A stretch of 64,000 nucleotides of DNA from Hyphococcus sp. GTDB taxonomy: Bacteria; Pseudomonadota; Alphaproteobacteria; Caulobacterales; Parvularculaceae. Position numbers and translations under genes: made by a program. The stretch covers positions 1 to 64,000 of the forward strand of contig JAJFGA010000051.1 of assembly GCA_021776375.1 (NCBI GenBank). The letters are read 5' to 3'. Below are positions 2,520-17,540 of the stretch, piece by piece. The notes beneath the pieces were generated by a model, which was not told the DNA's origin, did not search any database, and saw nothing but the letters and a program-made list of their open reading frames with translations. Position 1 is the first letter of the stretch. Every line of letters begins with the position of its first letter.

Positions 2520-2665
2520 GAGCACGCCCTCCTCGTTTTTACGCAAGAAGAGCCTCCTGCAGATTGCGACCAAGCGTCAATGGCTTTGCACAGCCGCATT
2601 TCGCGAGCTTTCACTGCAGTCTGGCCGGAAGCCGTGCTGGGCCACCGGCTCAAAACCGATATTCC

Positions 2666-2732
2666 GTCATCCCGGATAGCTAGAAAGTACTACGAAATCA
2701 AAGATTTCGGCACTTTCGGCTTCCGGGATGAC
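2666..2732. repeat. Interspersed palindrome starting GTCATCCCGGA
   Basis: GTCATCCCGGA at the left end pairs with TCCGGGATGAC at the right end; internal arms AAAGT/ACTTT and CGAAATC/GATTTCG extend the stem. The same outer arms recur at 23997-24094, and related arms occur at 16208-16307 and 25663-25768, so this is one copy of a dispersed REP-like element. Confidence 0.8.
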
Positions 2733-2827
2733 CGGTTATGGGGCTATCACCAGCCCGGTATGTTCATGGACATCTCGGTCTTGTGATCGAACAACAAGCA
2801 AGTCTTTCTTGTCGTTTCGCAATTTAT

Positions 2828-2839
2828 GTGTAGACACAC
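2828..2839. promoter_or_regulatory. Probable MarR operator (copy 1)
   Basis: GTGTAGACACAC immediately precedes the marR-like start. It matches GTGTATTTACAC at 3302-3313 in 9 of 12 positions (GTGTANNNACAC), and both are inverted repeats. Their placement before each of the two genes suggests autoregulation plus control of the membrane protein. Confidence 0.5.
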
Positions 2840-2843
2840 TCTT

Positions 2844-3284
2844 ATGACCAAAACCCGACCCCATATGACCGACCCTGAAGACTGCCTGTGCTTCAATCTG
2901 CGGCGCGCCGCGCGGGCGGCGACCAGAGCTTATGATGATGCGCTGGCGCCAGCGGCGCTGACATCGGTGCAATTTTCCGCACTCGCCGTGCTTGCCAAGA
3001 CCGGCCCTCTAGCGACCAGCAGCTTTTCTAAAGCGATGGAAACCGAGCGCACCACATCAACGCGTAATCTGGCTTTGATGGAGCGCGAGGGCCTCGTCAA
3101 ACGCAAAGCCGGCGCCGATAAACGCGTCCGGCTGATCGAAATCACGGCGCGGGGCCGACGCCGGTTTGAGACGGCGTTTCCCCTGTGGCGTGCTGCGCAA
3201 AAATCTTTGGCGACAAAACTCGGCGAGGTGAATGCGGCAAGCGTGCTGAAACGCAGCCGAGGCGTGGTCACGGTTCTGGAATAA
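2844..3284 (+). CDS. MarR-family transcriptional regulator
   Basis: A winged-helix regulator of about 146 residues. It shows the typical MarR layout: an N-terminal dimerisation helix (CLCFNLRRAARAATRAYD), then LTSVQFSALAVLAKTGPLATSSFSKAM, the recognition helix region ERTTSTRNLALMEREGLV, and a basic wing KAGADKRVRLIEITARGRR. Such proteins usually repress transcription and release DNA on binding phenolic or oxidative ligands. The start is uncertain: ATG codons at 2826, 2844 and 2865 are all in frame and none has a clear ribosome site. The first overlaps the operator-like repeat, so 2844 or 2865 is more likely. The membrane protein gene follows 47 bases downstream behind a second copy of the same repeat, suggesting it is the target. 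Confidence 0.85.
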   Translation: MTKTRPHMTDPEDCLCFNLRRAARAATRAYDDALAPAALTSVQFSALAVLAKTGPLATSSFSKAMETERTTSTRNLALMEREGLVKRKAGADKRVRLIEITARGRRRFETAFPLWRAAQKSLATKLGEVNAASVLKRSRGVVTVLE

Positions 3285-3301
3285 AAATTTTACCGATATA
3301 C

Positions 3302-3313
3302 GTGTATTTACAC
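3302..3313. promoter_or_regulatory. Probable MarR operator (copy 2)
   Basis: GTGTATTTACAC, an inverted repeat (GTGTA-TT-TACAC) sharing 9 of 12 bases with 2828-2839, sits between marR and the membrane protein, just upstream of the AAGGAG ribosome site. Confidence 0.5.
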
Positions 3314-3331
3314 CTAAAAGGAGAAAACCCG

Positions 3332-3982
3332 ATGACGACCCAAACCTATGGCGCTACTGGCGCTGATGTTATAAACGCAACCAAGCTGTCGCGGACGCCT
3401 TTTGTCTGGGCGATCCTCGCTGTCTGGGGCTACGCCGCCTTTGCCTTAAGCCAAAACGGCGTCTTTCAAAGCACGGCGGCGACCCCGCCCATCGCCATTG
3501 CCATCGCCGCCATTGGCCCGGCAGTATTATTTTTATCTGTATACAGTGTTTTTGCGCCGCTACGGCGCTGGGTTGATGGGCTCGACCTGTCCGAAATCAT
3601 CGCGTTGCAGGCCTGGCGTATTATAGGCTTCGCGTTTGTGGCCATTTGGGGACTTGGCGAGATCCCGGCTGTGTTCGCCTTGCCCGCCGGCATTGGCGAC
3701 ATGGCCGTCGGCATCGCCGCGCCGGCTGTCGCGCTCGCCGTTGAACGCCGCAGCAAAGGCTGGCGCCTCGGCGCCTATGGGCTGATCGCCGCCGGGATTT
3801 TCGATTTTATCGTTGCGTTTGCGACCGGCATCCTGTCGCGGCAAGGCGGCCCATTCGATTTTGAGGGCCATGTCGCCTCAAGCCTGCTTGGCGTTGCGCC
3901 TTTAAGCATGTTCCCGGCCTTCATCGTCCCGGCGTTCTTTATCTTGCACATTATCGCGCTGATTAAATTGCGCCGCGCATAG
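3332..3982 (+). CDS. Multi-pass membrane protein of unknown function
   Basis: A 216-residue hydrophobic protein with about six predicted membrane segments, beginning with VWAILAVWGYAAFAL and ending with FILHIIALIKLRRA. The ATG at 3332 is preceded by AAAAGGAG with normal spacing; the longer upstream frame overlaps marR and is discarded. No catalytic motif or family name is recognised. It follows the MarR gene and the operator-like repeat at 3302, so it is likely repressed by that regulator. A GC-rich hairpin with a short T run follows the stop. A role in solvent or stress response is possible from context only. Confidence 0.75.
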   Translation: MTTQTYGATGADVINATKLSRTPFVWAILAVWGYAAFALSQNGVFQSTAATPPIAIAIAAIGPAVLFLSVYSVFAPLRRWVDGLDLSEIIALQAWRIIGFAFVAIWGLGEIPAVFALPAGIGDMAVGIAAPAVALAVERRSKGWRLGAYGLIAAGIFDFIVAFATGILSRQGGPFDFEGHVASSLLGVAPLSMFPAFIVPAFFILHIIALIKLRRA

Positions 3983-3993
3983 TCGAAGCCGGG

Positions 3994-4020
3994 CCCGGCG
4001 GGTGATGTCCCGCCGGGTTT
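3994..4020 (+). terminator. Rho-independent-like terminator
   Basis: CCCGGCGGG and CCCGCCGGG form a perfect 9-bp stem with a 6-base loop, followed by TTT, just after the membrane protein stop codon. Confidence 0.65.
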
Positions 4021-4065
4021 GGCAGCGCAGTTGAACATGCATTAAATCACATGCCGTTCTTTGAA

Positions 4066-4920
4066 TTACGACGCACGCCGCCATGGCGCGGCGACGAAAC
4101 GGTCTTTTTGGTGCGCGCGAAACAGAAAATACAGCGCCAGAACAAGGCCGATGATGATGGTGACGACCGACGCTTCGACGCCGAACGCGCCGCCGGTCAT
4201 CAATTCCGGGCCGGCGATGGTCGCATCAAGCAAACCCTCTTGCTCAAAGCCGGAAACTGCGCCGCTATAAACCCCGCCAAGGGTGAAGTTCCAGCCGGCA
4301 TGCAGGCCGATCACCACCCACAGCCGGCGCGTGACCATATAGACCGCCGCCAGCAAAACGCCGGCTTCAAGGGCGATGGCGACCGCGGCGATAAGCGTTG
4401 CATTGTCATTGCCAAGATGCAGCGCGCCAAACAACGCGGCGCTGAACAACAACGAAATCCAGGTGCCGAGCCATTCCTCGATGATGCGAAAAATCACGCC
4501 GCGAAGGGCGATCTCCTCAACGAACCCGGTTGCGATCGCCGCAATCAATGGCGCGAGCAACAGATCTAAGCTGCGCACGCCGTTGATCTCAAAAAACCCC
4601 AGCAGATATAAAACGCCCATCACCGATGAGATGAACGCGACGCCGATCAGCATGCCGATCAATAATTCCGGAACCGCATAGCGGGCGGTAAGCTCTGACA
4701 CCACGCGCCCTTCAATAATGCGCACCAATATCCAATAGGAAAAACACGCTGCAAGGACCATAAGGCCCGTATTCAGCCCCGCGGCGACCAGCTGATCTTT
4801 CACGTCAAGGGTCACAATCAGGATCTGGATCGCATATCCCGCCGCGGACAAAAACCCGAGCAGCAAGACAATACCGAGGATAAGCCGCGTCAGCGGATAT
4901 CTGATGACTTTTAACAACAT
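4066..4920 (-). CDS. CPBP-family intramembrane glutamic protease
   Basis: A 284-residue polytopic membrane protein of the CPBP (CAAX protease and bacteriocin-processing, Abi) family. Catalytic motifs are EEIALR (E135, E136, R140), a later His in FGALHLGN, and HAGWNF near the C-terminus, in the order and spacing expected. These proteins cleave substrates within the membrane; bacterial roles range from maturation of sorted proteins to bacteriocin immunity. ATG 4920 is chosen, although a TTG at 4938 directly abutting the upstream stop is possible. It is the second gene after the SH3 lipoprotein. It is only 3 kb from the exosortase/CPBP fusion, but no functional link is shown. Confidence 0.88.
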   Translation of the reverse strand: MLLKVIRYPLTRLILGIVLLLGFLSAAGYAIQILIVTLDVKDQLVAAGLNTGLMVLAACFSYWILVRIIEGRVVSELTARYAVPELLIGMLIGVAFISSVMGVLYLLGFFEINGVRSLDLLLAPLIAAIATGFVEEIALRGVIFRIIEEWLGTWISLLFSAALFGALHLGNDNATLIAAVAIALEAGVLLAAVYMVTRRLWVVIGLHAGWNFTLGGVYSGAVSGFEQEGLLDATIAGPELMTGGAFGVEASVVTIIIGLVLALYFLFRAHQKDRFVAAPWRRAS

Positions 4921-4938
4921 CGGCGCGTCCCGTTTCAA

Positions 4939-5661
4939 TTATAGCCCGAGCAAGTCATCATCAGCAGCCGGTGGCGGGGCGACCGGACCGGCGCGGCGCC
5001 AGGCGACGCCGTCATGACAGGCCGCATCCGCCCATTCGTCTTGTTCGCTGGAAACACTGATCCGCTGGGTAAATTCACGACACCGGACCGGACGCCGCCG
5101 CGGCCCGCCCGCAAGCAACAGCTCCGTTCCCGGCGCCTTAATCGCCAGACTTTTATGGATATAGCCGCGCACCTTGCCATCGACCGCCGCCAACATCCAT
5201 ATCCCATCCGTCAGCCTACCGACAATTTCAACGCCAGAGCCCGCCGGCAGCTTTTCAGCAATCGCATATTGCGTGCCCGGTCCGATGCGGACGTTGGAAT
5301 TGCGGGTCAGGACATACAGACCAAGCTCGGTCTCCATCACATAGCCGATATCGATGTCTTCACGCGCAAGCGTGATGCGCGCATTCGGGTCGGGCTTTAA
5401 ATTGGCGATGGAATAATCGCCCGGCATAACCACGCCCGCCGCCCGCACGCCGCGCCAGCGCTGCGGCTGGCCGCTCTCCACCGCGGCAACCACCGCGCCG
5501 CCCAGCGCCTTGCGATCGCCAGAGGCAAGCCGCGCCGACAGGGCAGAGCCGGCGGCATAGTTTTCCTCCTCGCCGGTAAGGCCGAGCGATGACAGGCTGG
5601 CGCAGCCGCCAAGCATCAGCACGGCAAGGCAAGCAAGAGAGAAGGAGCGCGGCCAGAACAT
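4939..5661 (-). CDS. SH3-domain lipoprotein
   Basis: A 240-residue envelope protein with an N-terminal signal and lipobox (LMLGGC), predicting a lipoprotein. The central part is a bacterial SH3 domain: SNVRIGPGTQYAIAEKLPAG, followed by GIWMLAAVDGKVRGYIHKSL. The C-terminal part (CREFTQRISV..WADAACHDGVAWR) resembles the short cysteine-containing domain found in alphaproteobacterial surface-antigen-like lipoproteins. SH3b domains typically bind peptidoglycan, so a cell-wall-tethered role is likely. The stop codon directly abuts the possible TTG start of the CPBP gene, so the two are probably cotranscribed. Confidence 0.8.
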   Translation of the reverse strand: MFWPRSFSLACLAVLMLGGCASLSSLGLTGEEENYAAGSALSARLASGDRKALGGAVVAAVESGQPQRWRGVRAAGVVMPGDYSIANLKPDPNARITLAREDIDIGYVMETELGLYVLTRNSNVRIGPGTQYAIAEKLPAGSGVEIVGRLTDGIWMLAAVDGKVRGYIHKSLAIKAPGTELLLAGGPRRRPVRCREFTQRISVSSEQDEWADAACHDGVAWRRAGPVAPPPAADDDLLGL

Positions 5662-5751
5662 AGGGGGGAACCTTTCAAATTATACGCATTCAAGGGTTGC
5701 ACATTTAAGGACGGTTGTGGAGAGCGCCGGCGGGCGGTCCGCAAAGCTTGC

Positions 5752-6075
5752 TCAATCCAAAAACGCCCTCCCTTCACGGTCCTCAATTTCAACGATCCAC
5801 AGATCCGGATCGATGGCGATCTCTTTTTTGAGCCAGGCGTCGATCTTATTCTCGCTCAAATCATCTGCAAACGGCTCGCGCCAGATCGGGACGCCGTCCA
5901 GATCGCGGCTCTGAACGAACAGCTTCGCCTCCCCGGCGCCAAGATAGATTTTGACCGCAACGGCGCCCGCGTCGGGATCACCCTTGCGCGCCACTGTTGC
6001 AAACGCGCCCTCGCCCTGCGCCCGGCGCATATGGGCGGTGACGCGGATTTCGGTTTTGAGCCGCGGCTCAATCAT
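5752..6075 (-). CDS. DUF1491 family protein
   Basis: A 107-residue soluble protein matching the alphaproteobacterial DUF1491 pattern: LKTEIRVTAHMRRAQGEG at the start, a core KIYL..LFVQSRDLDGVPIWREPF, and the C-terminal KEIAIDPDLWIVEIEDREG. ATG 6075 is used because it gives the expected N-terminus and overlaps the upstream desaturase-like gene by 8 bases, a sign of translational coupling. The function of the family is unknown. It is often a single-copy core gene in Alphaproteobacteria, which supports the taxonomic inference. Confidence 0.85.
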   Translation of the reverse strand: MIEPRLKTEIRVTAHMRRAQGEGAFATVARKGDPDAGAVAVKIYLGAGEAKLFVQSRDLDGVPIWREPFADDLSENKIDAWLKKEIAIDPDLWIVEIEDREGRAFLD

Positions 6076-6964
6076 GTTTATGGCTGGCATGTTCGCGGCC
6101 GGCATGCTCGCTGTCGTCATCCGCTGCGGCCGTTTTCGGGATCGCCGCATGATCCGGCTTGCGGAATGGATCGAGCGCAAGATTGGCGAAACTGTCCGGC
6201 GTAATCGCCTCCGGGCCTTCGATGCCGAATATCTCGCCCTCGCGCAGACGGTCAGACGGCGTAAAGGAGTTGAACATCCGGTCCCACAGCGAGAACACCG
6301 TACCGAAATTTGTGTCGAGCCGCTCCGGCGCCGCTGAGTGATGCAGGCGGTGAATATGCGGCGTCACAAACACGCGCGAGACCACGCGCTCCACGGCCGG
6401 CGCCAGCGCGATATTCGTGTGGGTGTATGTATTGACCAGAATCAGCACCACAAAATTCACCACGATCGCTTCGGCCGGCAGGCCGAGAACAAACACCACC
6501 GGCAAATCGATGACCGCGCGGATCAGCGTTTCAAACGGATGAAATCGCAACGAGGTGGTTGCATCAATATGCCCATCGCCATGATGAGTGCGGTGGGTGC
6601 GCCACAGAAAATACCATTTGTGTAAAGAGCGATGAACGCTATAAGCAACCAGATCAAAGGCGATAATCGTCGCTAGCGCTGTCACCCACAGCGGCGCGGC
6701 GATCTGGTTAAACAGCCCAATGCCGTGCGCATCCGCGATCAGCGCGCCGCCAAACGTCGATAAAAACGGCAGCATGCCTAACAGGATAAATCCGTAAAAA
6801 CTCATCGACGCATTGCGCGTCCAGCGCGCCAGACTAATTTTAACGCCGCGCCGCCATGGCATGATCGCCTCGAGCACAAGCGCCGACGCCAGCACTCCAA
6901 GGGCAAAATATAACCCCGTTACGCCTTTGAAAAATTCCATAAGATTTTTGCCTGCTGACCTCAT
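6068..6964 (-). CDS. Sterol desaturase / fatty acid hydroxylase family protein
   Basis: A membrane-bound di-iron hydroxylase of about 298 residues. The histidine clusters of the superfamily are all visible: HRSLHK, HRTHHGDGHID, RFHPFE and HIHRLHHS, the last followed by DTNFGTVFSLWDRMF, a signature of the group. Several membrane segments precede the first box. Members oxidise sterols, carotenoids or fatty acyl chains; the substrate here is not determinable. ATG 6964 is the longest start; ATG 6940 is equally possible. It overlaps the DUF1491 gene at its 3' end. Confidence 0.9.
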   Translation of the reverse strand: MRSAGKNLMEFFKGVTGLYFALGVLASALVLEAIMPWRRGVKISLARWTRNASMSFYGFILLGMLPFLSTFGGALIADAHGIGLFNQIAAPLWVTALATIIAFDLVAYSVHRSLHKWYFLWRTHRTHHGDGHIDATTSLRFHPFETLIRAVIDLPVVFVLGLPAEAIVVNFVVLILVNTYTHTNIALAPAVERVVSRVFVTPHIHRLHHSAAPERLDTNFGTVFSLWDRMFNSFTPSDRLREGEIFGIEGPEAITPDSFANLALDPFRKPDHAAIPKTAAADDDSEHAGREHASHKHD

Positions 6965-7297
6965 AATGAGTCGCTTTTCAGCGTATTAGCATAAAACTCT
7001 ATCGCCGCCGGACGGGCGGCGAATTTTTGTGCCGTGCAACAACCGTAATTACTAAGCCGTTTTGGCGTGCAAACGCAAAAGTGTTACGCGAGTCTCCCGC
7101 ACCGCTCACAACCTTTACGGGCCATGCGTTGCATTCAACCTTACCAAACTGTATCATTTGGGGACTGCAGGATTGCGGTGTTTAAGGCGGGACAATGGGG
7201 GAATGAAATATTTCAAATTGCGTCGGCGCAGCGCGGCTTGATGGCTTTGCCGCCCGCACTGACGACAATAAAACCCGTAAATTGAGGAGAAATGACG
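6965..7297. other. Intergenic region upstream of the VPEM array
   Basis: About 330 bases shared by the divergent hydroxylase gene and the small-protein array. No tRNA, hairpin or credible reading frame was recognised; it must carry at least the array promoter. The ribosome site GAGGAGA lies at its right end. Confidence 0.6.
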
Positions 7298-7462
7298 ATG
7301 ACAAAATATATTCTGGCTGGAGCCCTGGCGTTTATGTCGACGGCGGCTATGGCTGGCCAAGCGGTGAAAGTGCCTGAAATGGGCGCCGGCGCTGGTGTTG
7401 CCGCGGTTGCGTTACTGATCGGCGTTGCTGCGATCATTCGTGAGCGTAGCAAACGTAAATAA
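7298..7462 (+). CDS. VPEM-type sorting-signal small protein 1
   Basis: A 54-residue precursor too short for ordinary gene calling. It has a signal peptide (MTKYILAGALAFMSTAAMA), a five-residue linker GQAVK, and then the tripartite C-terminal sorting signal: VPEM motif, GAGAG, a hydrophobic stretch VAAVALLIGVAAII and a basic tail RERSKRK. The layout matches substrates of exosortases, specifically the VPEID-CTERM group paired with exosortase E. ATG 7298 is preferred over 7292 because of spacing from GAGGAGA. It is first of four tandem paralogues upstream of the exosortase gene. If the signal peptide is removed, almost nothing remains outside the membrane except five residues plus the motif. Confidence 0.85.
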   Translation: MTKYILAGALAFMSTAAMAGQAVKVPEMGAGAGVAAVALLIGVAAIIRERSKRK

Positions 7463-7494
7463 ACAAAGCTGATAGAAACGGGGAGACAATGACG

Positions 7495-7719
7495 ATGAAA
7501 AACCTGACGATTTTGGGCGCACTGGCGCTCCTTACGACGCCCGCGAACGCGCAAGTAGCAGGGTGCAATGACATCACCATCACATCTGCAATTAAGGGAT
7601 TGGTCCTGGATAACCCTTGCTATGAAGTGCCTGAAATGAGCGCAGGCGCTGGTGTTGCCGCGATCGCGTTGCTTGTCGGCGTCGCCGCCATCATTCGTGA
7701 ACGAAACAAACGGAAATAG
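7495..7719 (+). CDS. VPEM-type sorting-signal small protein 2, with cysteine pair
   Basis: A 74-residue paralogue with a signal peptide ending TTPANA, a longer linker of about 25 residues (QVAGCNDITI... then IKGLVLDNPCYE) and the same C-terminal signal VPEMSAGAGVAAIALLVGV, ending RERNKRK. It is the only member with a sizeable exposed segment and the only one with cysteines there (two, about 18 residues apart), which could form a disulfide in the periplasm. The start at 7495 follows GGGGAGA with good spacing; 7489 is an in-frame alternative. It lies 32 bases after copy 1 and 13 before copy 3. Confidence 0.83.
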   Translation: MKNLTILGALALLTTPANAQVAGCNDITITSAIKGLVLDNPCYEVPEMSAGAGVAAIALLVGVAAIIRERNKRK

Positions 7720-7732
7720 AGGAGTAATGAAT

Positions 7733-7900
7733 ATGACAAAATATATTCTGGCGGGCGTCCTGGCTTTTATGTCGACGACGGCTATGGCTAGCATACCGAT
7801 GCATGAAGTGCCTGAAATGAGCGCTGGCGCTGGTGTTGCAGCGGTTGCGTTGCTTGTCGGCGTCGCCGCAATCATTCGTGAACGCAGCAAACGTAAATAG
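7733..7900 (+). CDS. VPEM-type sorting-signal small protein 3
   Basis: A 55-residue paralogue: signal peptide MTKYILAGVLAFMSTTAMA, short linker SIPMHE, then VPEMSAGAG, the hydrophobic segment and RERSKRK. Its signal peptide is nearly identical to copy 1, while the linker differs completely. GAGGAG lies upstream of ATG 7733. The gene follows copy 2 by 13 bases, so the array is a tight operon. The strong conservation of both ends, with only the few central residues free to change, is what one would expect if the centre is the product or the recognition tag. Confidence 0.85.
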   Translation: MTKYILAGVLAFMSTTAMASIPMHEVPEMSAGAGVAAVALLVGVAAIIRERSKRK

Positions 7901-7914
7901 GGGAGAACGGAAAG

Positions 7915-8085
7915 ATGATGAAATATATTCTTGGCGGAGCCATGGCTCTGGTTTCAACGGTGGCTATGGCTGGCAACGGTCACATCCCAGACGTGCCCGA
8001 AATGAGCGCCGGCGCCGGCGTTGCTGCGGTGGCGTTGCTAATCGGCGTTGCCGCAATCATTCGTGAGCGCAGCAAACGCAAATAG
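7915..8085 (+). CDS. VPEM-type sorting-signal small protein 4
   Basis: A 56-residue paralogue: signal peptide MMKYILGGAMALVSTVAMA, linker GNGHIPD, then VPEMSAGAG, the hydrophobic segment and RERSKRK. Two adjacent ATG codons (7915, 7918) follow GGGGAGAACGG. This is the last copy; a strong terminator follows 24 bases downstream, before the exosortase gene. Expression of substrates and enzyme can therefore be uncoupled. Confidence 0.83.
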   Translation: MMKYILGGAMALVSTVAMAGNGHIPDVPEMSAGAGVAAVALLIGVAAIIRERSKRK

Positions 8086-8109
8086 GCTTTGGTTTCGTTA
8101 ACCATTAAG

Positions 8110-8144
8110 ACGGCCCTTCACCTTTGTGGAGGGCCGTTTTTCTT
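8110..8144 (+). terminator. Rho-independent terminator after the VPEM array
   Basis: ACGGCCCT pairs with AGGGCCGT across a 12-base loop and is followed by TTTTTCTTT. It separates the four small genes from the exosortase gene. Confidence 0.85.
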
Positions 8145-8245
8145 TCCTGCGATTGGCATATGCCAGGCATATCATTTGGCGCAGTTCTCGCAGGCCTCTA
8201 GTCGGTAATCTTTTGCTTCCAAATCGAGCGCGGGTATAAACAGAC

Positions 8246-9904
8246 GTGGCTGAAACATCTTCATATCCGGTTGCGGCAGCGCCTGCGGGCCCTCCTCTCG
8301 CATTGCGCGGGTCGCTAATCTTTGTGCTAGCGCTGGTTGAGATGCCGGTTCTGGCTTTCCTTTACGATCCGCTGGCGATTAACGCCGCCGACCCGCTCTG
8401 GCTGACCGTGCGCGCGGGGCTCCGGGAAATGGTCCCGGTAGCGATCTTTTTTGGCGCCGCGCTCGGCGTTTTGCTGGCGCCGCAGTGGCGCACGCTGTTT
8501 GCGGACTGGCGGGCAGTCGCGACCGATCGCGGCTGGGCGCCCTGGGCAGGCGCAAATCTTGTCGGATTTGCCGCCCTCGCCGCCGCGACCGTCCTGTTCA
8601 ACACCCATGGCGCGGGCCTTAGCGAGCCGCCCTGGGTTTTGTTCAGCTTATGGTGCGTCGGCGTATTCGGCCTCTATTTTCTGTTGGCGCTGGCGCTGGC
8701 GCCATTTAAATTCTCTATACAGATTGTTGAGCGCCAAAAATGGCTGGTCTTGTTGGCGGCCGGCGCCGCCGGCTTTGTCGCCATAGCGTCAGAAATGTCG
8801 CAAAAATCCTGGACCTTCCTCTCCGAAGCGACGTTCCAGGTCTCCGCCTTTGTGCTTGGGCTTTATGAAAAAGATGTGTTCGTCGATCCCGCGCGCCGGC
8901 TGCTCGGCGCCGACGGCTTCGTCGTCAATATTGCGGCGGCCTGCTCCGGTTATGAGGGGATCGGCCTGGTGACCGCGTTTCTCGCAATTTATCTGTGGAT
9001 CTTCCGCACAGCGTTGCGGTTTCCCAATGCCTATCTGGTGTTGCCAATCGGCATCGCCGCAATCTGGACCTTAAACAGCGTGCGCATCGCCGCGCTGATC
9101 AGCCTCGGCGCGCATGTCTCGCCGGAGATCGCCGGCGCCGGATTTCACTCCCAGGCCGGGTGGATGATGTTCCTGATCGTCACCATCGGCATTATGCTGG
9201 CGACCCACCGCATTGGTTTTTTCCGCAACGAAAACGCCCATGCGTCAGACGCACCGCCATCCCCGGGCTTTCGCGAGGCGATGTTTTTACTGACGCCGTT
9301 CCTCGCCATGACCGCCGCGGGCATCATCGCCGCCGCCTTCACCGCCGACGGCTTTTGGCTTTACAGCTTACGGGTGATTGCGATTAGCGCGGCGCTTGTT
9401 GTCGGCTGGCGGTTTTATCGCAATCTTGCCCTACCAGAGAACTTGCGCGCTTACGCCGAGCCGGCGCTGATCGGTGCGATTGTCGGCGTGGCGTGGATTG
9501 CCACCGATCCGGGACGCGGCGAGACCAGCGATCTCGGGATCTGGCTGGCGGGCATGCCGGCGGCGGCGGCAATTTTCTGGATCGCCATGCGCACCATCGG
9601 TACAATCATCCTTGTACCGATTGCCGAGGAGCTTGTGTTTCGCGGCTATCTTCACCGCAAGCTGATCGCCGACCACTTTGAGACGGTCAAAGAGGCCGCC
9701 TTCACCTGGAAAGCATTCGCCATCTCAACGGTTCTGTTCGCGCTGCTGCACGACCGCTGGCTCGCCGGCGGCCTCGCCGGCGCCGCCTTCGCGCTCGCGC
9801 TTTATCGTTCCGGCAAAGTCACGGGCGCCATCATCGCGCATATGTCGGCCAATGCGGTGATCGCCTTCTGGGCGATTGTCTTTGGGCAGTGGAGTTTGCT
9901 TTAG
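8246..9904 (+). CDS. xrtE: Exosortase E / CPBP protease fusion
   Basis: A 552-residue polytopic membrane protein fusing two peptidase-like domains. The N-terminal exosortase domain carries the expected catalytic triad: Cys233 in AACSGYEGIG, Arg280 in NSVRIAALISLG, and His301 in GAGFHSQAGW. The C-terminal third is a CPBP domain with EELVFRGY (E461, E462, R466) and a later His502. This architecture is that of exosortase E of the VPEID-CTERM system. Exosortases cleave C-terminal sorting signals and probably transfer the product to an envelope acceptor. The start is GTG 8246. The four VPEM proteins directly upstream are the obvious substrates. Confidence 0.92.
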   Translation: MAETSSYPVAAAPAGPPLALRGSLIFVLALVEMPVLAFLYDPLAINAADPLWLTVRAGLREMVPVAIFFGAALGVLLAPQWRTLFADWRAVATDRGWAPWAGANLVGFAALAAATVLFNTHGAGLSEPPWVLFSLWCVGVFGLYFLLALALAPFKFSIQIVERQKWLVLLAAGAAGFVAIASEMSQKSWTFLSEATFQVSAFVLGLYEKDVFVDPARRLLGADGFVVNIAAACSGYEGIGLVTAFLAIYLWIFRTALRFPNAYLVLPIGIAAIWTLNSVRIAALISLGAHVSPEIAGAGFHSQAGWMMFLIVTIGIMLATHRIGFFRNENAHASDAPPSPGFREAMFLLTPFLAMTAAGIIAAAFTADGFWLYSLRVIAISAALVVGWRFYRNLALPENLRAYAEPALIGAIVGVAWIATDPGRGETSDLGIWLAGMPAAAAIFWIAMRTIGTIILVPIAEELVFRGYLHRKLIADHFETVKEAAFTWKAFAISTVLFALLHDRWLAGGLAGAAFALALYRSGKVTGAIIAHMSANAVIAFWAIVFGQWSLL

Positions 9905-10059
9905 AGCGCTTATGCTCTTGCTAATTTCCGTTATTGGCCCTTTTGAGACAATCGCATAGCTTGGCATGAGTGGTAGGTTCATCTCAGAAGCGGACATAAC
10001 AAAACGTAAGTTCTATAACCTGCCAGCAGTTTTGGGCGTTGTAGAATCGCGGTTTTGCA

Positions 10060-10440
10060 TCATGCTAAGACTTCCAAGGCATTTGAGAAAATTTGATCTA
10101 GTGCATCGTCCAATTCCACACGCCATTCACGCGCAATTATTTCATCCGCGCCAAGTACTTCTCCTGCTCGTAAGGGGCTACCTGACACCTCGAAAAACGG
10201 AGCATCAGTTTCCGTCAAGACCCGGCCTCGCGGCGCCACTGCTATCAATGCTTGGCCTGACTTGGTTGCCAACATCTGTTGGTTCACAGAAAACCAACAA
10301 CCCATGTCAATCGCTCTCCGGACCTCGGTCATTCCGCCGGTACACCAGTGCAGAACCACTGTGTTTGAACCACAAGCGCGAGGCGCTTCCAAGCAGTCGA
10401 GGACCTGCCGGGCACATCGCACACTGTGTATGCTGATCAC
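10060..10440 (-). pseudogene. TatD-family nuclease fragment (QatD-like), N-terminus missing
   Basis: This frame encodes the C-terminal half of a TatD-type metal-dependent deoxyribonuclease. Recognisable elements are SIHSVRCARQVLD, VVLHWCTGGMTEVRRAIDMGCWFSVN and the metal-binding RVLTETDAPF. Intact TatD proteins are roughly twice as long; here the first half, with the HxH metal site, is absent and an in-frame TGA lies just upstream of the GTG at 10440. The wording LHW..G....RRAIDxGCWFSV is closer to the nuclease of Qat antiphage systems (QatD) than to housekeeping TatD, as far as memory allows. No other Qat gene is visible. It is best read as a decayed remnant of a defence gene. Confidence 0.7.
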
Positions 10441-10689
10441 CTTTCTACCTCAAAGCCATATCACCGTACACGAATGATCTTAAAAACGATGCAAACATTA
10501 TCGCCGATATTCAAGTTTCAGGACTTGAGGAGAGCGCGCAAAATAGGGGAAATTCGGGTGGAGGTAATATCGATATTGCACTTGGCCCACACCCATTACG
10601 CAACACTTTACCGTGAGGGGCTTGTATTGGGGTGGGCGCTTTGCGAGAAGGCACGCACCGGAAAATCAGTCTAGGAGAATTTCAAAAAA

Positions 10690-11907
10690 ATGATTAGAGC
10701 AGCGGAAAATTGGGCCATGGTATTGGCAGTGGTTACAGGTTCGGTTTTGTTAGGGGCGTCAAATGCAACTTACGCTGATATGGATGAGACCCGTGCAACT
10801 GAAACCGAAAAAAGCCCACAGCAATCCGAGGAACAACTGGTTGCTCGCTATGATTCATTAATGAAAAAAAACGAAGAAAATGGCTTCTCGGGTGTCGTAT
10901 TGGTCGAAGAAAGAGGCAAGCTTATTTATAACAAGGCTTTCGGGTATGCCGACAAAATAAAGGAAATCAAGAATACGCCGGAAACATTATTCGATATAGG
11001 GTCCATCACCAAGCAGTTCACGGCTGCAGCCATTTTAAAGCTGATGGAAAACGGCGAGCTTTCCGTGAATGATCCCTTGTCAAAATTCTTTGACGGGGCG
11101 CCTGCCGACAAGAAAGACATCACCCTTCATCAACTGCTGACGCATACCTCGGGGATTTCCGCCTATACTGGCGACGATTATGAATATCTATCATCCGACG
11201 ATTTTCTAAAGCAGGTTTTCAAACGAAAGCTAAAGGCAAAACCGGGGAAGAAACACATCTATGCCAATGTCGGCTACAGTCTTCTTGCAATGATTGTTGA
11301 GCGCGTTTCTGGCCAGTCTTACGAAACATTCCTCTATGAAAATATTCTCCACCCGGCAGGGCTCGAAAATACCGGCTACCTGAGGCTTGATTACAGTCAG
11401 TATGTTGTTGCACAGGGCCGTAATTATAGAAACAACAAACCGTGGGGGTCCAATGTTGAACGCTGGGCGGAAGCTGGCGGGGTTTCTTGGCATTTGAAAG
11501 GCAATGGCGGCATTCTGTCGACCACACTTGATATGTATAAGTGGCATCGCGCCATCCAGACCGCAAAGGTGCTCAAACCTGAAACAGTCGAATTATACCA
11601 GGCGCCGCATGTTGTAACTGGAGTTAACCCTAAAAGACATTACGCTTATGGATGGGGAATCCTCACCAGCAGCAAAAGGGGCAAAGTGGCAACGCATGAC
11701 GGCAGCAATGGTATTTTTTCCGCCTACGTGCTGCGTTATGTCGACGCCAATGGGGCAGTCATTTATATGACGAACGAGACAAGCCCCGGTACGAGTAAAC
11801 TGCTCCAGGAACTGGTTAATATCCTTCGCTTGCCAGATTACGAACCGCAGATAATCCAAAAACCAACACCGTCTAGCCGATTAAAGTGCAGAATTAACTG
11901 TTTTTAA
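10690..11907 (+). CDS. Serine beta-lactamase-like hydrolase, exported
   Basis: A 405-residue protein of the class C beta-lactamase/penicillin-binding superfamily (COG1680-like). A signal peptide is followed by the SxxK nucleophile motif in DIGSITKQFTAAA, the YAN motif in HIYANVGYSLLA, and a late HDGSNG block that replaces the KTG box. HTSGI after LLTH is also typical. These enzymes are usually esterases or D-amino-acid peptidases and only rarely true lactamases. Lysine content and AT-rich codons are higher than in neighbouring genes, and the gene sits beside a TatD remnant, so acquisition by transfer is likely. ATG 10690 follows TAGGAG. Confidence 0.87.
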   Translation: MIRAAENWAMVLAVVTGSVLLGASNATYADMDETRATETEKSPQQSEEQLVARYDSLMKKNEENGFSGVVLVEERGKLIYNKAFGYADKIKEIKNTPETLFDIGSITKQFTAAAILKLMENGELSVNDPLSKFFDGAPADKKDITLHQLLTHTSGISAYTGDDYEYLSSDDFLKQVFKRKLKAKPGKKHIYANVGYSLLAMIVERVSGQSYETFLYENILHPAGLENTGYLRLDYSQYVVAQGRNYRNNKPWGSNVERWAEAGGVSWHLKGNGGILSTTLDMYKWHRAIQTAKVLKPETVELYQAPHVVTGVNPKRHYAYGWGILTSSKRGKVATHDGSNGIFSAYVLRYVDANGAVIYMTNETSPGTSKLLQELVNILRLPDYEPQIIQKPTPSSRLKCRINCF

Positions 11908-12017
11908 TTGAGTTTTCCCCGTGAAGGCGCTCGTCAGAACCGAAAGCCGGTTGAGTGTGTGGGGCCACAAAATCAGACTTTCCAGGATTAAGGCGATAAA
12001 ATCAGGAGCGTTTTGTA

Positions 12018-13340
12018 GTGCGTAAAATCAAGGCAGTTTTGTCCGTGTCTCTGTTGGTGCTTGCCGTTTCTGGCTGCGAGAACATTGGTCAACTTAGGTA
12101 TCTCTCAAATGTGTCGCTGGACCCGAATGGAGACCCTGCGCAACCAGCCGTGTTGGCGGAGTTTGAAGGTGACGCAGCGGTGAATTCAGCCGACGAATGG
12201 CGAGACCGTCGCGCGTCTGTATTGCGCGAGGCGTTTCAACGTGACCTGTACGGATATTTCCCGGACGACTCCGAAGTCGTGGTCGGCGACGTTCAGCTGA
12301 TTGACGACGACGCCTATGAGGGTTTGGCGACGATCGAACTTGTCCCATTAACAATCCGCACTCGGTTTGGAGAAGGTGAATGGGTTGAACGAACGATTCG
12401 GCTTGTCCTGGCAAAACCAAAAGCGGCAACCACACCCTCACCAGTGATCCTAAAAATGGACTTTTGCCCGTTTAATGAAACATTTCGACATGACGGCCTG
12501 CCGAATGGCGAGATCGAGGTAATCCTGCCTGAAAGAACAGGAAACTCAAACGTGAGCTGCGCAATTACGGGGTTTAGTCCTCTTGATCGGCTGGCGTCTT
12601 ATGCCTTGGGGCGGTACCACGTATCGCCTCCGATTGAAGAAATGATAGCGCGTGGGTATGCCTTCGCCGCTATTAACGTGCTTGAATACGTCGTTGATAG
12701 TTCAGATTTTGGCCGCAAGCAATTGGAGTTGTTATCGCGCGGCCATGACGGAAATGCCGCATGGGGCGCCATTGCAGCATGGGCGTCGCAATTCTCACGT
12801 GCAATAGACTATCTTGATACAGACGAAGACCTTGACACTAATCGGACAGCGATTTACGGCCATTCGCGTTACGGAAAAGCAGCGCTGGTCGCGGGCGCAT
12901 TTGATGACCGCATTGACGCCGTCATTGCACATCAATCAGGTAGAGGCGGCGCCGCGCTGACCCGCAGCGTAGTCGGTGAGCCCATCGTGGAAATGACTGC
13001 GACATACCCTGATTGGTTTTCAAAAGCGTATACAAAGCGCGCGAAAGACAGCCCGGAACTGCCGTTTGATCAACACCAGCTGATCGCGCTGCTCGCCCCC
13101 CGGCCGGTTCTGCTGGGACATGCGCGGCGTGATAAATGGTCTGATCCGAACGGCGCCTTCCGCGCAGCTCAAGGGGCAGACCTGGTTTATGGGCTATTTG
13201 ACTCAGAAGGCCTGACCGCGGAACGCCTGAATGAATTCGATCCGGATGCCGACATCGCATTTTGGATTAGGCCCGGCACGCATGGCGAAGTGAAGGAAGA
13301 CTGGCCAGCATTTTTAGAATTTCTCGATGCGCATTTTTAA
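12018..13340 (+). CDS. Alpha/beta-hydrolase lipoprotein, CE15 glucuronoyl-esterase-like
   Basis: A 440-residue exported lipoprotein (lipobox AVSGC) with an alpha/beta-hydrolase fold. The nucleophile motif GHSRYGKAAL resembles the GCSRxGK motif of carbohydrate esterase family 15; it is followed by HQSGRGGAALTR, LPFDQHQLIALLAPRPVLL (acid-bearing strand) and PGTHGE (catalytic His). CE15 enzymes cleave ester bonds between lignin and 4-O-methylglucuronic acid in xylan; a related sugar ester could be the target here. The start is a GTG at 12018. The gene is co-oriented with the beta-lactamase-like gene, about 110 bases apart. Confidence 0.75.
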   Translation: MRKIKAVLSVSLLVLAVSGCENIGQLRYLSNVSLDPNGDPAQPAVLAEFEGDAAVNSADEWRDRRASVLREAFQRDLYGYFPDDSEVVVGDVQLIDDDAYEGLATIELVPLTIRTRFGEGEWVERTIRLVLAKPKAATTPSPVILKMDFCPFNETFRHDGLPNGEIEVILPERTGNSNVSCAITGFSPLDRLASYALGRYHVSPPIEEMIARGYAFAAINVLEYVVDSSDFGRKQLELLSRGHDGNAAWGAIAAWASQFSRAIDYLDTDEDLDTNRTAIYGHSRYGKAALVAGAFDDRIDAVIAHQSGRGGAALTRSVVGEPIVEMTATYPDWFSKAYTKRAKDSPELPFDQHQLIALLAPRPVLLGHARRDKWSDPNGAFRAAQGADLVYGLFDSEGLTAERLNEFDPDADIAFWIRPGTHGEVKEDWPAFLEFLDAHF

Positions 13341-13557
13341 ACGGTTGATCCGCCTTAGCGGTCGCAAACAGATGCGTCCGCATTTCCCAAAACTCGCCAC
13401 TCATGGGCGACTCCGCGATCGACCGTTTTGGGCCAGAAATACTCGGTCGAGCGTTCGAATCCGAATGTCTCCTTTTGCGCCCATTCCCGTCCTGTGCAAA
13501 GCGAAGCGCTACGCCTGCTTTAGACGAACAGGCCACTCGGTATCAATCGAAAACGCT

Positions 13558-14871
13558 CTATGCCGCATCCGCGGCGCGGTCTCGGCGATAGGCGTTGACG
13601 CGGTCAAGCTGGCTTTGAATATCGCAAACCGATGCGCTGACGGCGGAGCTTTCCTGCCCGCCCGCAAACGAGCGCCGCACCGGCAGAGTGAGGCGCGCGG
13701 TGGTGCCTTTGCCGAGTTCCGATTGCAACCTAAGCGCGCCGCCATGCAGTTTGGCCAGTGAGAACGCCAGGGACAGGCCGAGGCCAGAGCCTTTTGCTCC
13801 GCGGACGCCGTCTTTATGGGTGTCGGAATAGCGCCCGCCCTGTTTGGCAAGCTCTATCGCGTTCATGCCGATGCCGGTGTCGCGCACCGTGAAATCAAGT
13901 GCGCCGCATTTTTCTTCAACCGACAATTCAATCTCGCCTTCGGCGGTAAACTTGACCGCATTGGTGAGCAGGTTGATCAAAATTTGTTTGACCGCGCGCA
14001 CATCAATCATGGTTTCGGGAAGATCCGGCGCGATGTTAACCCGCAAGGAAAGCCCGGCGCGCGCCGCCTCGTCGCGGATCATCGCCGCGCATTCACGCGC
14101 CACCGGCCCCGGCGCGCCCAACACCGGATGTAAATCATAACGCCCGGTCTCGACCTTGGCGTAGTCGAACAGCGAGGCGATGAGATCTTGTAAATGCGCG
14201 CCGGCCGCGTGGATATCGCCGACATATTCGACATATTTCTCATGCCCGAGCGGGCCGTAGGTCTCCGCCCGCATAGAGTCGGCAAAACCCATAATGGCGT
14301 TGAGCGGGGTTTTCATCTCATGGCTCAAATTGGCCATCAGCTCAGGCTGCGCCGTTGGTGCGGGATCGGGTGAAAGGATTGTTTCAGGCGGCGTTTGCGG
14401 TGCGGTTTGCGCGGCAATGGAATGCGGCATCGCCTGGCGGGCGATACGCTCTTCCTCGATGCGGATCTCGCGGCTTCGCGCCAGCTCCTCGCTGCGGTCG
14501 CGGATCAGCGCCATCAGCCGGCCGCGGCCAAGCGGTTTAAAGGTGATTTCCGCCAACGCCGCCGCCCGGCGCACGCGCAACAGCCGGAAATCAGCGCGCA
14601 GCCGGCTCGCCGGCGCATAAGGGCTGGTCGTCGCCTGGGCCATCGCCGCACGCACCGCCGCACGGTCTTCCCGGCGGACAAAATCAAATAGCGAGCGGCC
14701 AACCAGATTGCCCGCCGCGCCGATCATCTCGGCCGCTGATGGCGAGACCTCAAGGAAGATGCCGTCATCATAGAGCGAGGCCACCATATCGCCGGTTCCG
14801 CCGCGCCAGACCGGGGCGCCGCGAACGCCCAGAGCGAGTTTTCTAAACAGGGAGAATGGGCGAAATTCCAT
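13558..14871 (-). CDS. PAS-containing sensor histidine kinase
   Basis: A 437-residue cytosolic-looking kinase without obvious membrane segments. Residues about 30-125 form a PAS-like domain (SLYDDGIFLEVSPSAAEMIG). The HisKA motif NLSHEMKTPLNAIMGFAD places the phospho-acceptor at His184. The HATPase domain shows N (LINLLTNAVKF), G1 (RDTGIGM) and G2 (GSGLGLSLAFSLAKLHGG) boxes. It would autophosphorylate in response to a PAS-sensed cue, but no response regulator is adjacent, so it is an orphan kinase. The gene is convergent with the CE15-like esterase. An AAT-rich promoter region lies upstream. Confidence 0.92.
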   Translation of the reverse strand: MEFRPFSLFRKLALGVRGAPVWRGGTGDMVASLYDDGIFLEVSPSAAEMIGAAGNLVGRSLFDFVRREDRAAVRAAMAQATTSPYAPASRLRADFRLLRVRRAAALAEITFKPLGRGRLMALIRDRSEELARSREIRIEEERIARQAMPHSIAAQTAPQTPPETILSPDPAPTAQPELMANLSHEMKTPLNAIMGFADSMRAETYGPLGHEKYVEYVGDIHAAGAHLQDLIASLFDYAKVETGRYDLHPVLGAPGPVARECAAMIRDEAARAGLSLRVNIAPDLPETMIDVRAVKQILINLLTNAVKFTAEGEIELSVEEKCGALDFTVRDTGIGMNAIELAKQGGRYSDTHKDGVRGAKGSGLGLSLAFSLAKLHGGALRLQSELGKGTTARLTLPVRRSFAGGQESSAVSASVCDIQSQLDRVNAYRRDRAADAA

Positions 14872-15072
14872 GGGCTATCAGGGGTCTGGGGGCCGCTGCC
14901 TTCTTAACTATTTCGACAGATTCGTTAACGTCGGTTCACCATGGAGCAATTGTCGTTAATAAAGACTGAATGAGGCAAAGCCCCACAAAAATTGCATATT
15001 GCTCCCGTGAATGGTCGAATTTGGTGATAATTCAGTTAGGATCGTCAGCGCGGTGTTAATCGCTGGGGCGGT

Positions 15073-15126
15073 AATGTGACGGGCATGTCGGGGGGGCTTT
15101 TGCACGCCCGATGGGACTGTCACATT
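15073..15126 (+). promoter_or_regulatory. Long hairpin in the leader of the 15143 gene
   Basis: AATGTGAC (15073-15080) pairs perfectly with GTCACATT (15119-15126), and inner arms TCGGG/CCCGA continue the stem. It ends about 8 bases before the ribosome site GGGAGAAG of the gene at 15143, so if transcribed it could control translation or mRNA stability. Confidence 0.5.
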
Positions 15127-15142
15127 CTGGGAGAAGTTATCT

Positions 15143-16180: not shown

Positions 16181-16207
16181 GGTTGCTCCAAGAAGAATTT
16201 TCTTCTT

Positions 16208-16307
16208 GTCATTGCCGGACTTGTTCCGGCAATCCAGGGCAGAAAATAAAGCAGACTTTCTGGATCACCGGGCTGGATTGAGCAAGCAATTCAGGCCCGG
16301 TGATGAC
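16208..16307. repeat. Interspersed double-hairpin element (GTCATTGCCGGA type)
   Basis: The left end GTCATTGCCGGA forms a small hairpin with TCCGGCAATCCAGG; the right end carries CTGGATCACCGGG ... CCCGGTGATGAC. Layout and end sequences match the element at 25663-25768. Confidence 0.8.
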
Positions 16308-16399
16308 ACGAGGAAGGGTTCACCGGTGCTAACGGATAGAAATAACTCATCTCGTTTTGGAACACGCTCTTAACACTGACTTGCACTCATAAACGCATG

Positions 16400-16434
16400 A
16401 AAAAAGGCCGCTTGTTATGAGCGGTCTTTTTTTT
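16400..16434. terminator. Bidirectional terminator
   Basis: AAAAAAGGCCGCT and AGCGGTCTTTTTTTT form a stem flanked by A and T runs, lying between the converging gene at 15143 and the HxlR gene (it overlaps the latter's stop). Confidence 0.75.
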
Positions 16435-16789
16435 GCGCCCGGCGCTTGGCGCGCAGTTTGAGCTTGTGGCCGACCTCGGCGATCGCCTCGAGCGCTGGCA
16501 ACAGGGCGCGGCCATCGCTCGTCAACGCATATTCGACCGAGGGCGGCGAGGTTGGCTTGACCGCGCGGCTGACAATGCCTTTTTCTTCAAGCTGTTTCAG
16601 CCGCACCGTCAGCACCTTCGCCGAGATCGGCGGAATATCGACCCGCAGCTCACTGAATCGGCGCGGACCGGCGCTGAGATTCCACAAAATATTCGGCGCC
16701 CAGGCGCCGCCGATCACCGACATGCATTCGGAGAGCGGGCAATCATGGGGGACCGGCGGGCTGTTATTTTTTCGAACTTTCAAAGCCAT
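16415..16789 (-). CDS. HxlR-family transcriptional regulator
   Basis: A 124-residue winged-helix regulator. Typical HxlR elements are CPLSECMSVIGGAWAPNILWNLSAGPRRFSELR, the recognition segment ISAKVLTVRLKQLEEKGIV and the wing ending YALTSDGRALLPAL. The N-terminal cysteine, often redox-sensing in this family, is present. It is transcribed divergently from a glutathione S-transferase, with operator-like repeats in between, so it probably controls the GST/tautomerase pair in response to electrophiles. Confidence 0.9.
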   Translation of the reverse strand: MALKVRKNNSPPVPHDCPLSECMSVIGGAWAPNILWNLSAGPRRFSELRVDIPPISAKVLTVRLKQLEEKGIVSRAVKPTSPPSVEYALTSDGRALLPALEAIAEVGHKLKLRAKRRAQKKDRS

Positions 16790-16802
16790 GGGACGTCCAT
16801 CC

Positions 16803-17527: not shown

Positions 17528-17540
17528 ACTTGAACCAGTT

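What the first reader, a model, noticed from the sequence alone, without database searches (positions are those of the whole stretch)
7298..9904. Exosortase E with a tandem array of four tiny VPEM substrates
Four consecutive genes of 54-74 codons share a signal peptide and a nearly identical tripartite C-terminal signal (VPEM-GAGAG, hydrophobic helix, RER.KRK) and sit directly before an exosortase/CPBP fusion with all catalytic residues present (Cys233, Arg280, His301; E461/E462). The exosortase E/VPEID-CTERM pairing is known at family level; an array of four minimal substrates with Met in place of Ile-Asp seems unusual. A terminator separates array and enzyme, so substrate dosage may be set independently.
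Basis: partly seen in the sequence, partly recalled or inferred. Interest (0 to 1): 0.88.

Follow-up and report, generated by a model that had tools for sequence, protein, structure and literature searches.

The report
Exosortase with nearly cargo-less substrate genes
A marine bacterium carries a protein-sorting enzyme whose neighbouring substrate genes are almost nothing but address labels, next to a dedicated lipid-hydroxylase-type gene; the same trio recurs in distant bacterial groups and gives a concrete way to ask what this class of enzyme attaches its substrates to.

Summary
Four genes (54, 74, 55, 56 codons; 7298-8085) with signal peptides and a VPEM/helix/RERxKRK tail precede an exosortase E-protease fusion (8246-9904; 259 bits, cut-off 150), with a terminator between. 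The array is not a quirk: 11 of 11 Marinicaulis loci have 2-4 such genes. A tail profile finds 37 strong hits in 10 of 60 genomes, 36 beside xrtE. The substrates are nearly cargo-less: 4-11 residues separate the predicted signal-peptidase site from VPEM in 32 of 36. Acidobacteriota show the same. It accompanies all 11 Marinicaulis arrays; linked homologues occur in two gammaproteobacterial, one other alphaproteobacterial and six acidobacterial loci. Away from xrtE, 12 of 13 hydroxylases of this subfamily that I examined flank tiny VPE genes, against 0 of 20 other PF04116 genes. I read it as a dedicated three-part exosortase system that makes very small exported peptides, probably joined to a lipid that the hydroxylase supplies or modifies. 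Cleavage, transfer and acceptor are inferred, and most short-substrate loci outside Marinicaulis show no adjacent hydroxylase. New variant of a known kind.

The parts
6068..6964 (-). PF04116 membrane hydroxylase (298 aa), divergent from the array; three His boxes
   Evidence: PF04116 97.3 bits, cut-off 31; His boxes in 31 of 32 homologues checked, this one included; family beside all 11 Marinicaulis arrays
6965..7297 (.). 333-nt region between hydroxylase and array, presumed to hold promoters for both
   Evidence: aligned among five Marinicaulis loci with several conserved blocks; no sigma-70-type site found there
7298..7462 (+). VPEM gene 1, 54 aa; predicted core GQAVK (5 aa)
7495..7719 (+). 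VPEM gene 2, 74 aa; 25-aa core with two Cys, a subtype shared with L033, L042 and L045
7733..7900 (+). VPEM gene 3, 55 aa; predicted core SIPMHE (6 aa)
7915..8085 (+). VPEM gene 4, 56 aa; predicted core GNGHIPD (7 aa)
8107..8140 (+). intrinsic terminator between array and xrtE
   Evidence: comparable hairpins in 11 of 11 Marinicaulis loci
8246..9904 (+). xrtE, exosortase E/protease fusion, 552 aa (exosortase half with Cys233, Arg280, His301; CPBP half with E461, E462, R466, H502, N536)
   Evidence: TIGR04162 259.1 bits; PF09721 and PF02517; residues

Best explanation
This is a dedicated exosortase E system built from three parts: (1) XrtE, a membrane cysteine exosortase fused to a CPBP glutamic protease; (2) an array of nearly cargo-less substrates, each a signal peptide, a core of usually 4-11 residues, and a VPEM/helix/basic tail; (3) a dedicated PF04116 di-iron-type membrane hydroxylase. 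Proposed working: Sec exports each mini-protein and signal peptidase removes the leader. The exosortase half cuts at VPE(M) on the outer face and passes the short peptide to a membrane acceptor. The hydroxylase makes or modifies the lipid acceptor or the lipid of the product. The CPBP half may clear the left-over helix or trim the product. The output would be small peptide-lipid conjugates, needed in number, hence the tandem copies. Shown: gene content, selection on the tails, co-occurrence and linkage. Inferred: cleavage, transfer, lipid acceptor and the roles of the hydroxylase and CPBP halves.
For: Tails and XrtE co-occur (10 of 12 XrtE genomes, 0 of 48 others); 37 tail hits at E<1e-15, next best 0.002, so no further VPEM proteins are seen in those genomes. 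Cores are 4-11 aa in 32 of 36 genes, with an invariant Ala at the predicted -1 site (six rows re-read by eye). Array-type hydroxylases (13 hits, 298 bits or more) are in the same 10 genomes and no others; other PF04116 hits score 157 bits or less. Hydroxylase-linked loci need at least 4 changes on the XrtE tree of 41 loci, and gene order differs between lineages: divergent, co-directional 20-25 nt downstream of xrtE, or convergent with the tiny genes. In Acidobacteriota 6 of 60 PF04116 genes lie in XrtE windows, 0.09 expected under even placement, P 7e-10. Away from xrtE, 12 of 13 subfamily hydroxylases flank tiny VPE genes, against 0 of 20 other PF04116 genes (P 4e-8). Precedent: the related archaeosortase ArtA processes its substrate with lipid attachment and needs PssA/PssD (passages of PMC9263693).
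Against: No cleavage, lipidation or expression data exist here. Hydroxylase linkage is not universal: 31 of 39 short-substrate xrtE loci outside Marinicaulis have none in view, none of the 18 loci whose shortest substrate exceeds 62 aa has it, and 11 of the 46 XrtE+ acidobacterial genomes have no PF04116 hit at all. Some acidobacterial cores are 0-3 residues, which leaves little peptide to transfer. On the larger hydroxylase tree the xrtE-linked copies are not one clade (6 changes; 2 on the smaller tree).
Confidence: 0.4

Rival explanations
1. The tiny proteins are membrane-embedded partners or regulators of the hydroxylase; the conserved helix is the functional part, and XrtE controls how long each stays in the membrane.
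For: The helix and tail are the most conserved part (mean column identity 84%; pN/pS 0.19 against 0.44 for signal peptides). Tiny genes sit with the hydroxylase even away from xrtE. Some cores are almost absent.
Against: Conservation of the tail is also expected if it is only the XrtE recognition signal. A regulator would not obviously need up to five copies or an invariant Ala at the predicted signal-peptidase site. 31 of 39 short-substrate xrtE loci outside Marinicaulis show no hydroxylase in view.
Confidence: 0.27
2. The cores are secreted signal peptides, made much as AgrD is processed by a membrane cysteine protease (AgrB) plus a CPBP protease (MroQ); here the two activities are fused.
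For: Short precursors with leader, short variable core and conserved tail; a cysteine and a CPBP protease in one chain; recurring core types between species; MroQ removes the AgrD leader (passages of PMC10482373). NF046050 (MroQ) hits the CPBP half weakly, 17.3 bits, cut-off 270.
Against: Acidobacterial cores hold almost no information. No receptor gene family was found at all loci; the histidine kinase near 8 of 11 Marinicaulis loci shows no membrane sensor to my eye (not tested). The hydroxylase is unexplained.
Confidence: 0.12
3. Ordinary VPEID-type surface proteins that happen to be short; the array is a copy-number expansion and the hydroxylase neighbourhood reflects shared regulation only.
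For: Where a substrate was detected, xrtE neighbours in most gammaproteobacterial loci and in two alphaproteobacterial genomes (G081, G387) are longer proteins with the same kind of tail, so short forms could be one end of a range.
Against: Short forms recur in at least four lineages, no further VPEM protein is seen in the Marinicaulis genomes, and the hydroxylase pairing persists at sites without xrtE.
Confidence: 0.18
4. The four ORFs are not genes.
For: They are very short.
Against: Ribosome-binding sites, signal peptides, strong excess of synonymous change and conservation across 11 loci.
Confidence: 0.01

Closest known systems
Exosortase E/protease with VPEID-CTERM proteins (NCBIfam TIGR04162/TIGR04161)
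   Same: Same enzyme family by score and catalytic residues; tripartite tail of the same shape; substrate gene beside the enzyme.
   Different: Window tails fall below the TIGR04161 cut-off; substrates almost lack cargo and come in arrays; a dedicated PF04116 hydroxylase accompanies them.
PEP-CTERM/EpsH exosortase systems (PMC1569441)
   Same: Signal peptide plus motif, helix and basic tail. That paper already reports four EpsH-CAAX protease fusions (passages).
   Different: Species with PEP-CTERM often have twenty or more such proteins (passage of PMC3237569), and the system is tied to exopolysaccharide genes; here 2-4 mini-substrates and a lipid-type hydroxylase.
Archaeosortase A/PGF-CTERM of Haloferax (PMC9263693)
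   Same: Related cysteine enzyme family; C-terminal cleavage with lipid attachment that depends on lipid-synthesis enzymes (passages).
   Different: Its best-known substrate is the S-layer glycoprotein; no CPBP fusion, array or hydroxylase is described in the passages seen.
Myxosortase MrtX and MYXO-CTERM (PMC11980579)
   Same: A CPBP-family protease that cleaves a tripartite C-terminal tag (passages).
   Different: A CPBP enzyme without an exosortase half as far as the passages say; dozens of targets per genome.
Ornithine lipid hydroxylase OlsE (NF052566; PMC3972451)
   Same: Nearest named NCBIfam model of the hydroxylase; OlsE hydroxylates the ornithine part of a lipid (passages).
   Different: Window protein scores 73.9 bits against a cut-off of 475, so it is not OlsE.

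Membership tests
Exosortase E/protease (TIGR04162) | Profile score over the curated cut-off (150 bits) | tested here: met
   259.1 bits over residues 53-551
Exosortase E/protease (TIGR04162) | Exosortase Cys/Arg/His and CPBP Glu-Glu in one chain | tested here: met
   C233, R280, H301, E461, E462, R466, H502, N536
Exosortase E/protease (TIGR04162) | Cleaves and transfers a C-terminally tagged protein | not testable with these tools
   no experiment available
VPEID-CTERM (TIGR04161) | Profile score over the curated cut-off (33 bits) | tested here: not met
   16.3-18.4 bits for the four window proteins; a congeneric member in G022 reaches 33.2 with its neighbours in the frame, the only one of 60 genomes over the cut-off
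VPEID-CTERM (TIGR04161) | Signal peptide, motif, hydrophobic helix, basic tail, gene beside xrtE | tested here: met
   36 of 36 aligned Marinicaulis genes by alignment and pattern; signal peptides judged by AxA rule and hydropathy, no dedicated predictor
PF04116 fatty acid hydroxylase superfamily (gene at 6068-6964) | Profile score over cut-off and three His boxes | tested here: met
   97.3 bits, cut-off 31; full pattern in the window protein
Ornithine lipid hydroxylase OlsE (NF052566) | Profile score over the curated cut-off (475 bits) | tested here: not met
   73.9 bits; five linked homologues 68-89 bits
AgrD/AgrB/MroQ peptide signalling | MroQ profile score over cut-off (270 bits) | tested here: not met
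   NF046050 17.3 bits; works-like comparison only
AgrD/AgrB/MroQ peptide signalling | Secreted core peptide sensed by a membrane receptor | not testable with these tools
   no experiment available; neighbour clustering found no further family at all 11 Marinicaulis loci

The most novel reading that the evidence does not exclude
An exosortase has been turned into a synthase of ribosomal lipopeptides: the precursors are signal peptide plus sorting signal with a tiny core, XrtE joins the exported core to a lipid, and a dedicated PF04116 hydroxylase tailors that lipid. The cassette of hydroxylase and precursor array occurs in two bacterial phyla (three classes) and can sit away from the enzyme.
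Probability: 0.25. Interest if true: 0.85.

Novelty: new variant of a known kind. Interest (0 to 1): 0.64.

Why it matters
What exosortases attach their substrates to is, to my knowledge, still open. A version in which the substrate is stripped to a few residues and is tied genetically to a lipid-type hydroxylase points at a lipid acceptor and makes the product small enough for direct mass spectrometry. Gene callers may also drop proteins this short, so such systems are probably under-annotated (inference).

Tried and rejected
Chance ORFs: rejected by synonymous/non-synonymous counts and conservation over 11 loci. Recent tandem duplication or gene conversion as the sole cause of similarity: rejected, synonymous differences within loci are high (pS 0.54). 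A hidden set of other VPEM proteins: not found with a 31-position tail profile in own genome and 59 relatives (29 of the 37 hits were training rows, so the search bears on absence elsewhere, not on the hits themselves). Tiny substrates always need an adjacent hydroxylase: rejected, 31 of 39 short-substrate loci outside Marinicaulis have none in view; the association at xrtE loci is only suggestive (8 of 39 against 0 of 18, one-sided P 0.037). One single origin of hydroxylase linkage: not supported by the XrtE tree. Solved relatives: none by sequence for XrtE or the hydroxylase, and Foldseek of the XrtE model (mean pLDDT 83.4) found nothing at E below 0.001, so the model added nothing. Peptide signalling through the nearby histidine kinase: considered, weak. 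Literature: ten searches of the held PMC library. Those for VPEID, XrtE, TIGR04161/TIGR04162 and for exosortase with hydroxylase terms (in 82 only 12 of 88 papers were listed) showed no paper on this pairing. A 2012 exosortase/archaeosortase paper that I recalled by its PMC number is not held and may describe short VPEID substrates.

Limits of the counts. Substrate lengths use the shortest plausible start and are lower bounds; the script also lists false or doubtful hits (a 193-aa frame in the window, second hits in L223, L239, L250, L251, L262) and finds no substrate in 20 loci. Of the 13 acidobacterial loci it scores as having two or more substrates, I count nine with two or more clear tiny genes on reading. 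The 200-bit line that separates the hydroxylase subfamily was set after seeing the scores (13 at 218 or more, 19 at 140 or less, one, L313, not re-found by my profile and counted among the others). The hydroxylase profile was trained on linked and unlinked genes outside the test loci, the tail profile only on xrtE-adjacent acidobacterial genes. In one search I fetched, chosen by hand, 20 of the 54 PF04116 genes that lie away from xrtE in the 46 XrtE+ genomes; eight of them had already grouped with linked ones, and of the other twelve five fell in the subfamily, four with tiny genes. In one search I fetched all 13 PF04116 genes of 20 genomes without XrtE, out of 197 such genomes. Places of G handles bear no organism names; 'Acidobacteriota' rests on the titles of L083 and L079, whose genomes lie in that order. 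The host genus is judged from titles of same-genus records.

Full report
What is there. The window lies in contig C47 of a 3.1-Mb MAG (84% complete, 2.3% contaminated). Same-genus records are titled Marinicaulis. Four + strand genes of 54, 74, 55 and 56 codons (7298-8085) each encode a signal peptide ending in AxA, a short core, VPEM, an Ala/Val/Leu-rich helix and RERSKRK or RERNKRK. A hairpin with a T run follows at 8107-8140. Then comes a 552-aa protein at 8246-9904 that passes TIGR04162 (259.1 bits against 150) and has exosortase (PF09721) and CPBP/Rce1-like (PF02517) halves. The named catalytic residues are correct.

Real genes. Within loci the tail codons have pS 0.54 and pN 0.10, and signal-peptide codons pS 0.62 and pN 0.27. 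Across 36 genes from 11 Marinicaulis loci, V, P, E, M, the Ala before the predicted signal-peptidase site and several helix positions are invariant. The proteins are old and selected.

Not the formal VPEID family. TIGR04161 is the best NCBIfam hit of all four proteins but at 16-18 bits, below its cut-off of 33. A homologue in G022 reaches 33.2 with its neighbours in the frame. I therefore call the tail a VPEM variant of VPEID-CTERM and do not file the four proteins as members.

Distribution inside the genus. Sixty genomes, own included, were searched. XrtE over the cut-off is in 12. A profile of the VPEM tail has 37 hits at E below 1e-15, in 10 genomes, all 10 with XrtE; the next best hit has E 0.002. 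Thirty-six of the 37 lie beside xrtE; the other is near the end of contig G026:C89, with a hydroxylase of the same kind as neighbour. Some of these tails end open frames of up to 160 aa, but an in-frame start that gives a signal peptide yields 53-76 aa. Two XrtE genomes lack tails: G024, whose xrtE starts at base 7 of a contig, and G056, whose XrtE relative has Tyr for the catalytic Cys. Array sizes at the 11 loci are 4, 4, 4, 3, 3, 3, 2, 3, 3, 4 and 3. The window's own genome has a second, syntenic array and xrtE on contig C37. A terminator-like hairpin separates array from xrtE in all 11 loci.

Nearly cargo-less substrates. By the AxA rule the core is 4-11 residues in 32 of 36 genes and 25-27 residues with two Cys in four (the script took the first AxA, and I re-read six rows in which a later AxA fits better). 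After signal peptidase and a cut at VPE(M), the usual product would be a peptide of roughly 7-14 residues. The same design is common elsewhere. In the order of G456 (Acidobacteriota by the titles of L083 and L079), 46 of 257 genomes have XrtE over the cut-off. Of 48 loci (47 fetched, plus L083) 47 could be scored; 35 have a detected substrate and 33 of these have one no longer than 62 aa. About nine have two or more clear tiny genes, and L228 has five in a row. Three genes of 57-61 aa precede xrtE in a Cellvibrionales MAG, L070. By contrast, nine loci on the gammaproteobacterial side (L072, L074, L076, L077, L128-L131, L133) and the alphaproteobacterial G387 and G081 loci have one detected substrate of 91-160 aa counted from the first start, and G446 and G448 also have tails away from xrtE. 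Eight of the 30 other loci scored show no substrate.

The hydroxylase. Clustering the neighbours of xrtE over Marinicaulis and distant loci gave one other family at all 11 Marinicaulis loci: a PF04116 hydroxylase, also found at two distant loci (Pfam). A profile search added L083 (Solibacteraceae) and L137 (an alphaproteobacterium of another family, two copies), and L221, L239, L257, L259 (partial, at a contig end) and L262 in Acidobacteriota. Gene order varies: divergent in Marinicaulis; 20 and 25 nt downstream of xrtE on the same strand in L069 and L070; a frame that begins at the xrtE stop in L083; convergent with tiny genes in many acidobacterial sites. L036 has two hydroxylases, each with its own VPEM pair.

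Is the linkage more than chance? In the 60 genomes the array-type hydroxylase (13 hits, 298 bits or more) is in exactly the 10 genomes with VPEM tails; other PF04116 hits score 157 bits or less, and 57 of 60 genomes have some hit. One exception is a truncated copy, 134 aa at 51% identity, in G016, which has no XrtE over the cut-off and no strong tail and looks like a remnant. In the 46 XrtE+ acidobacterial genomes 60 PF04116 genes were found. Six lie in the XrtE windows, which make up 0.46 of 310.5 Mb; 0.09 are expected and P is 7e-10 if genes are placed evenly. On the XrtE tree of 41 loci hydroxylase linkage needs at least four changes.

The cassette away from xrtE. In the larger hydroxylase tree, acidobacterial genes beside xrtE grouped with eight that are not. 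I fetched surroundings of 20 of the 54 PF04116 genes that are away from xrtE in XrtE+ genomes and all 13 from 20 XrtE-lacking genomes. With a tail profile trained only on xrtE-adjacent genes, 12 of 13 hydroxylases of the subfamily have one to four tail genes (frames of at most 125 aa) within 1.5 kb, ten of the twelve tail to tail; 0 of 20 other PF04116 genes do (P 4e-8), and none of the 13 genes from XrtE-lacking genomes scores as subfamily. A pattern scan had given 11 of 13. So hydroxylase and tiny genes form a unit that XrtE can serve from elsewhere. All but one of 32 hydroxylases checked keep the three His boxes.

How it most likely works. Shown: gene content, selection, co-occurrence, linkage and conserved active-site residues. 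Inferred: signal peptidase removes the leader; the exosortase half cuts at VPE(M) and transfers the short peptide; the acceptor is a lipid made or modified by the hydroxylase; the CPBP half removes the helix or trims the product. For lipid transfer the closest precedent is archaeosortase A, which processes the S-layer glycoprotein with lipid attachment and depends on PssA and PssD (passages of PMC9263693). For CPBP cleavage of such tags the precedent is myxosortase (passages of PMC11980579).

Evidence against this reading. 31 of 39 short-substrate xrtE loci outside Marinicaulis show no hydroxylase in view; 11 of the 46 XrtE+ acidobacterial genomes had no PF04116 hit; some cores are nearly absent; linked hydroxylases are not one clade on the larger tree; nothing here proves cleavage or a lipid. 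A reading in which the helix is the working part, as a partner of the hydroxylase, is a serious rival.

Novelty. Exosortase E, its fusion and its VPEID partner are known; fusions were noted in 2006 (passages of PMC1569441). Searches of the held library showed no paper on the hydroxylase pairing or on arrays of mini-substrates (82 was a capped list), but a 2012 exosortase paper I recall is not held. I rate it a new variant of a known kind.

Noticed in passing
G000:C37 (L033 whole, 18.8 kb) against window 1-17600: A second, near-syntenic copy of the window's left end in the same MAG (CPBP gene, SH3 gene, hydroxylase, array, xrtE, serine hydrolase, kinase and others in the same order); a large duplication or a mix of two related strains.
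   Followed up: partly
L147 (G016:C41), 8689-9201: Truncated array-type hydroxylase in a genome without XrtE over the cut-off or strong VPEM tails, probably a remnant of a lost system.
   Followed up: partly
L035, 9722-11428: XrtE relative in which the catalytic Cys, CPBP His502 and Asn536 are replaced; no substrate found beside it.
   Followed up: partly
L042, 4908-5756 (-): 282-aa protein with a PEP-CTERM-like tail (GIPEIPLPGAF...) 2.5 kb from xrtE; weak exosortase-like matches are on G000:C20, G009:C35 and G026:C119, so a second sorting system is likely.
   Followed up: no
L293 1923-2750; L301 933-2662: PF04116 genes of another subfamily next to roughly 270-aa PEP-CTERM-like proteins, a possible parallel pairing of a hydroxylase with an exosortase substrate.
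   Followed up: no
window 13558-14871 (-): Histidine-kinase-like gene found near xrtE in 8 of 11 Marinicaulis loci, directly adjacent and convergent in several.
   Followed up: no
window 7495-7719; L033 8500-8724; L042 7826-8059; L045 8943-9179: A distinct array member with a 25-27 aa core and two conserved cysteines recurs at four loci.
   Followed up: partly
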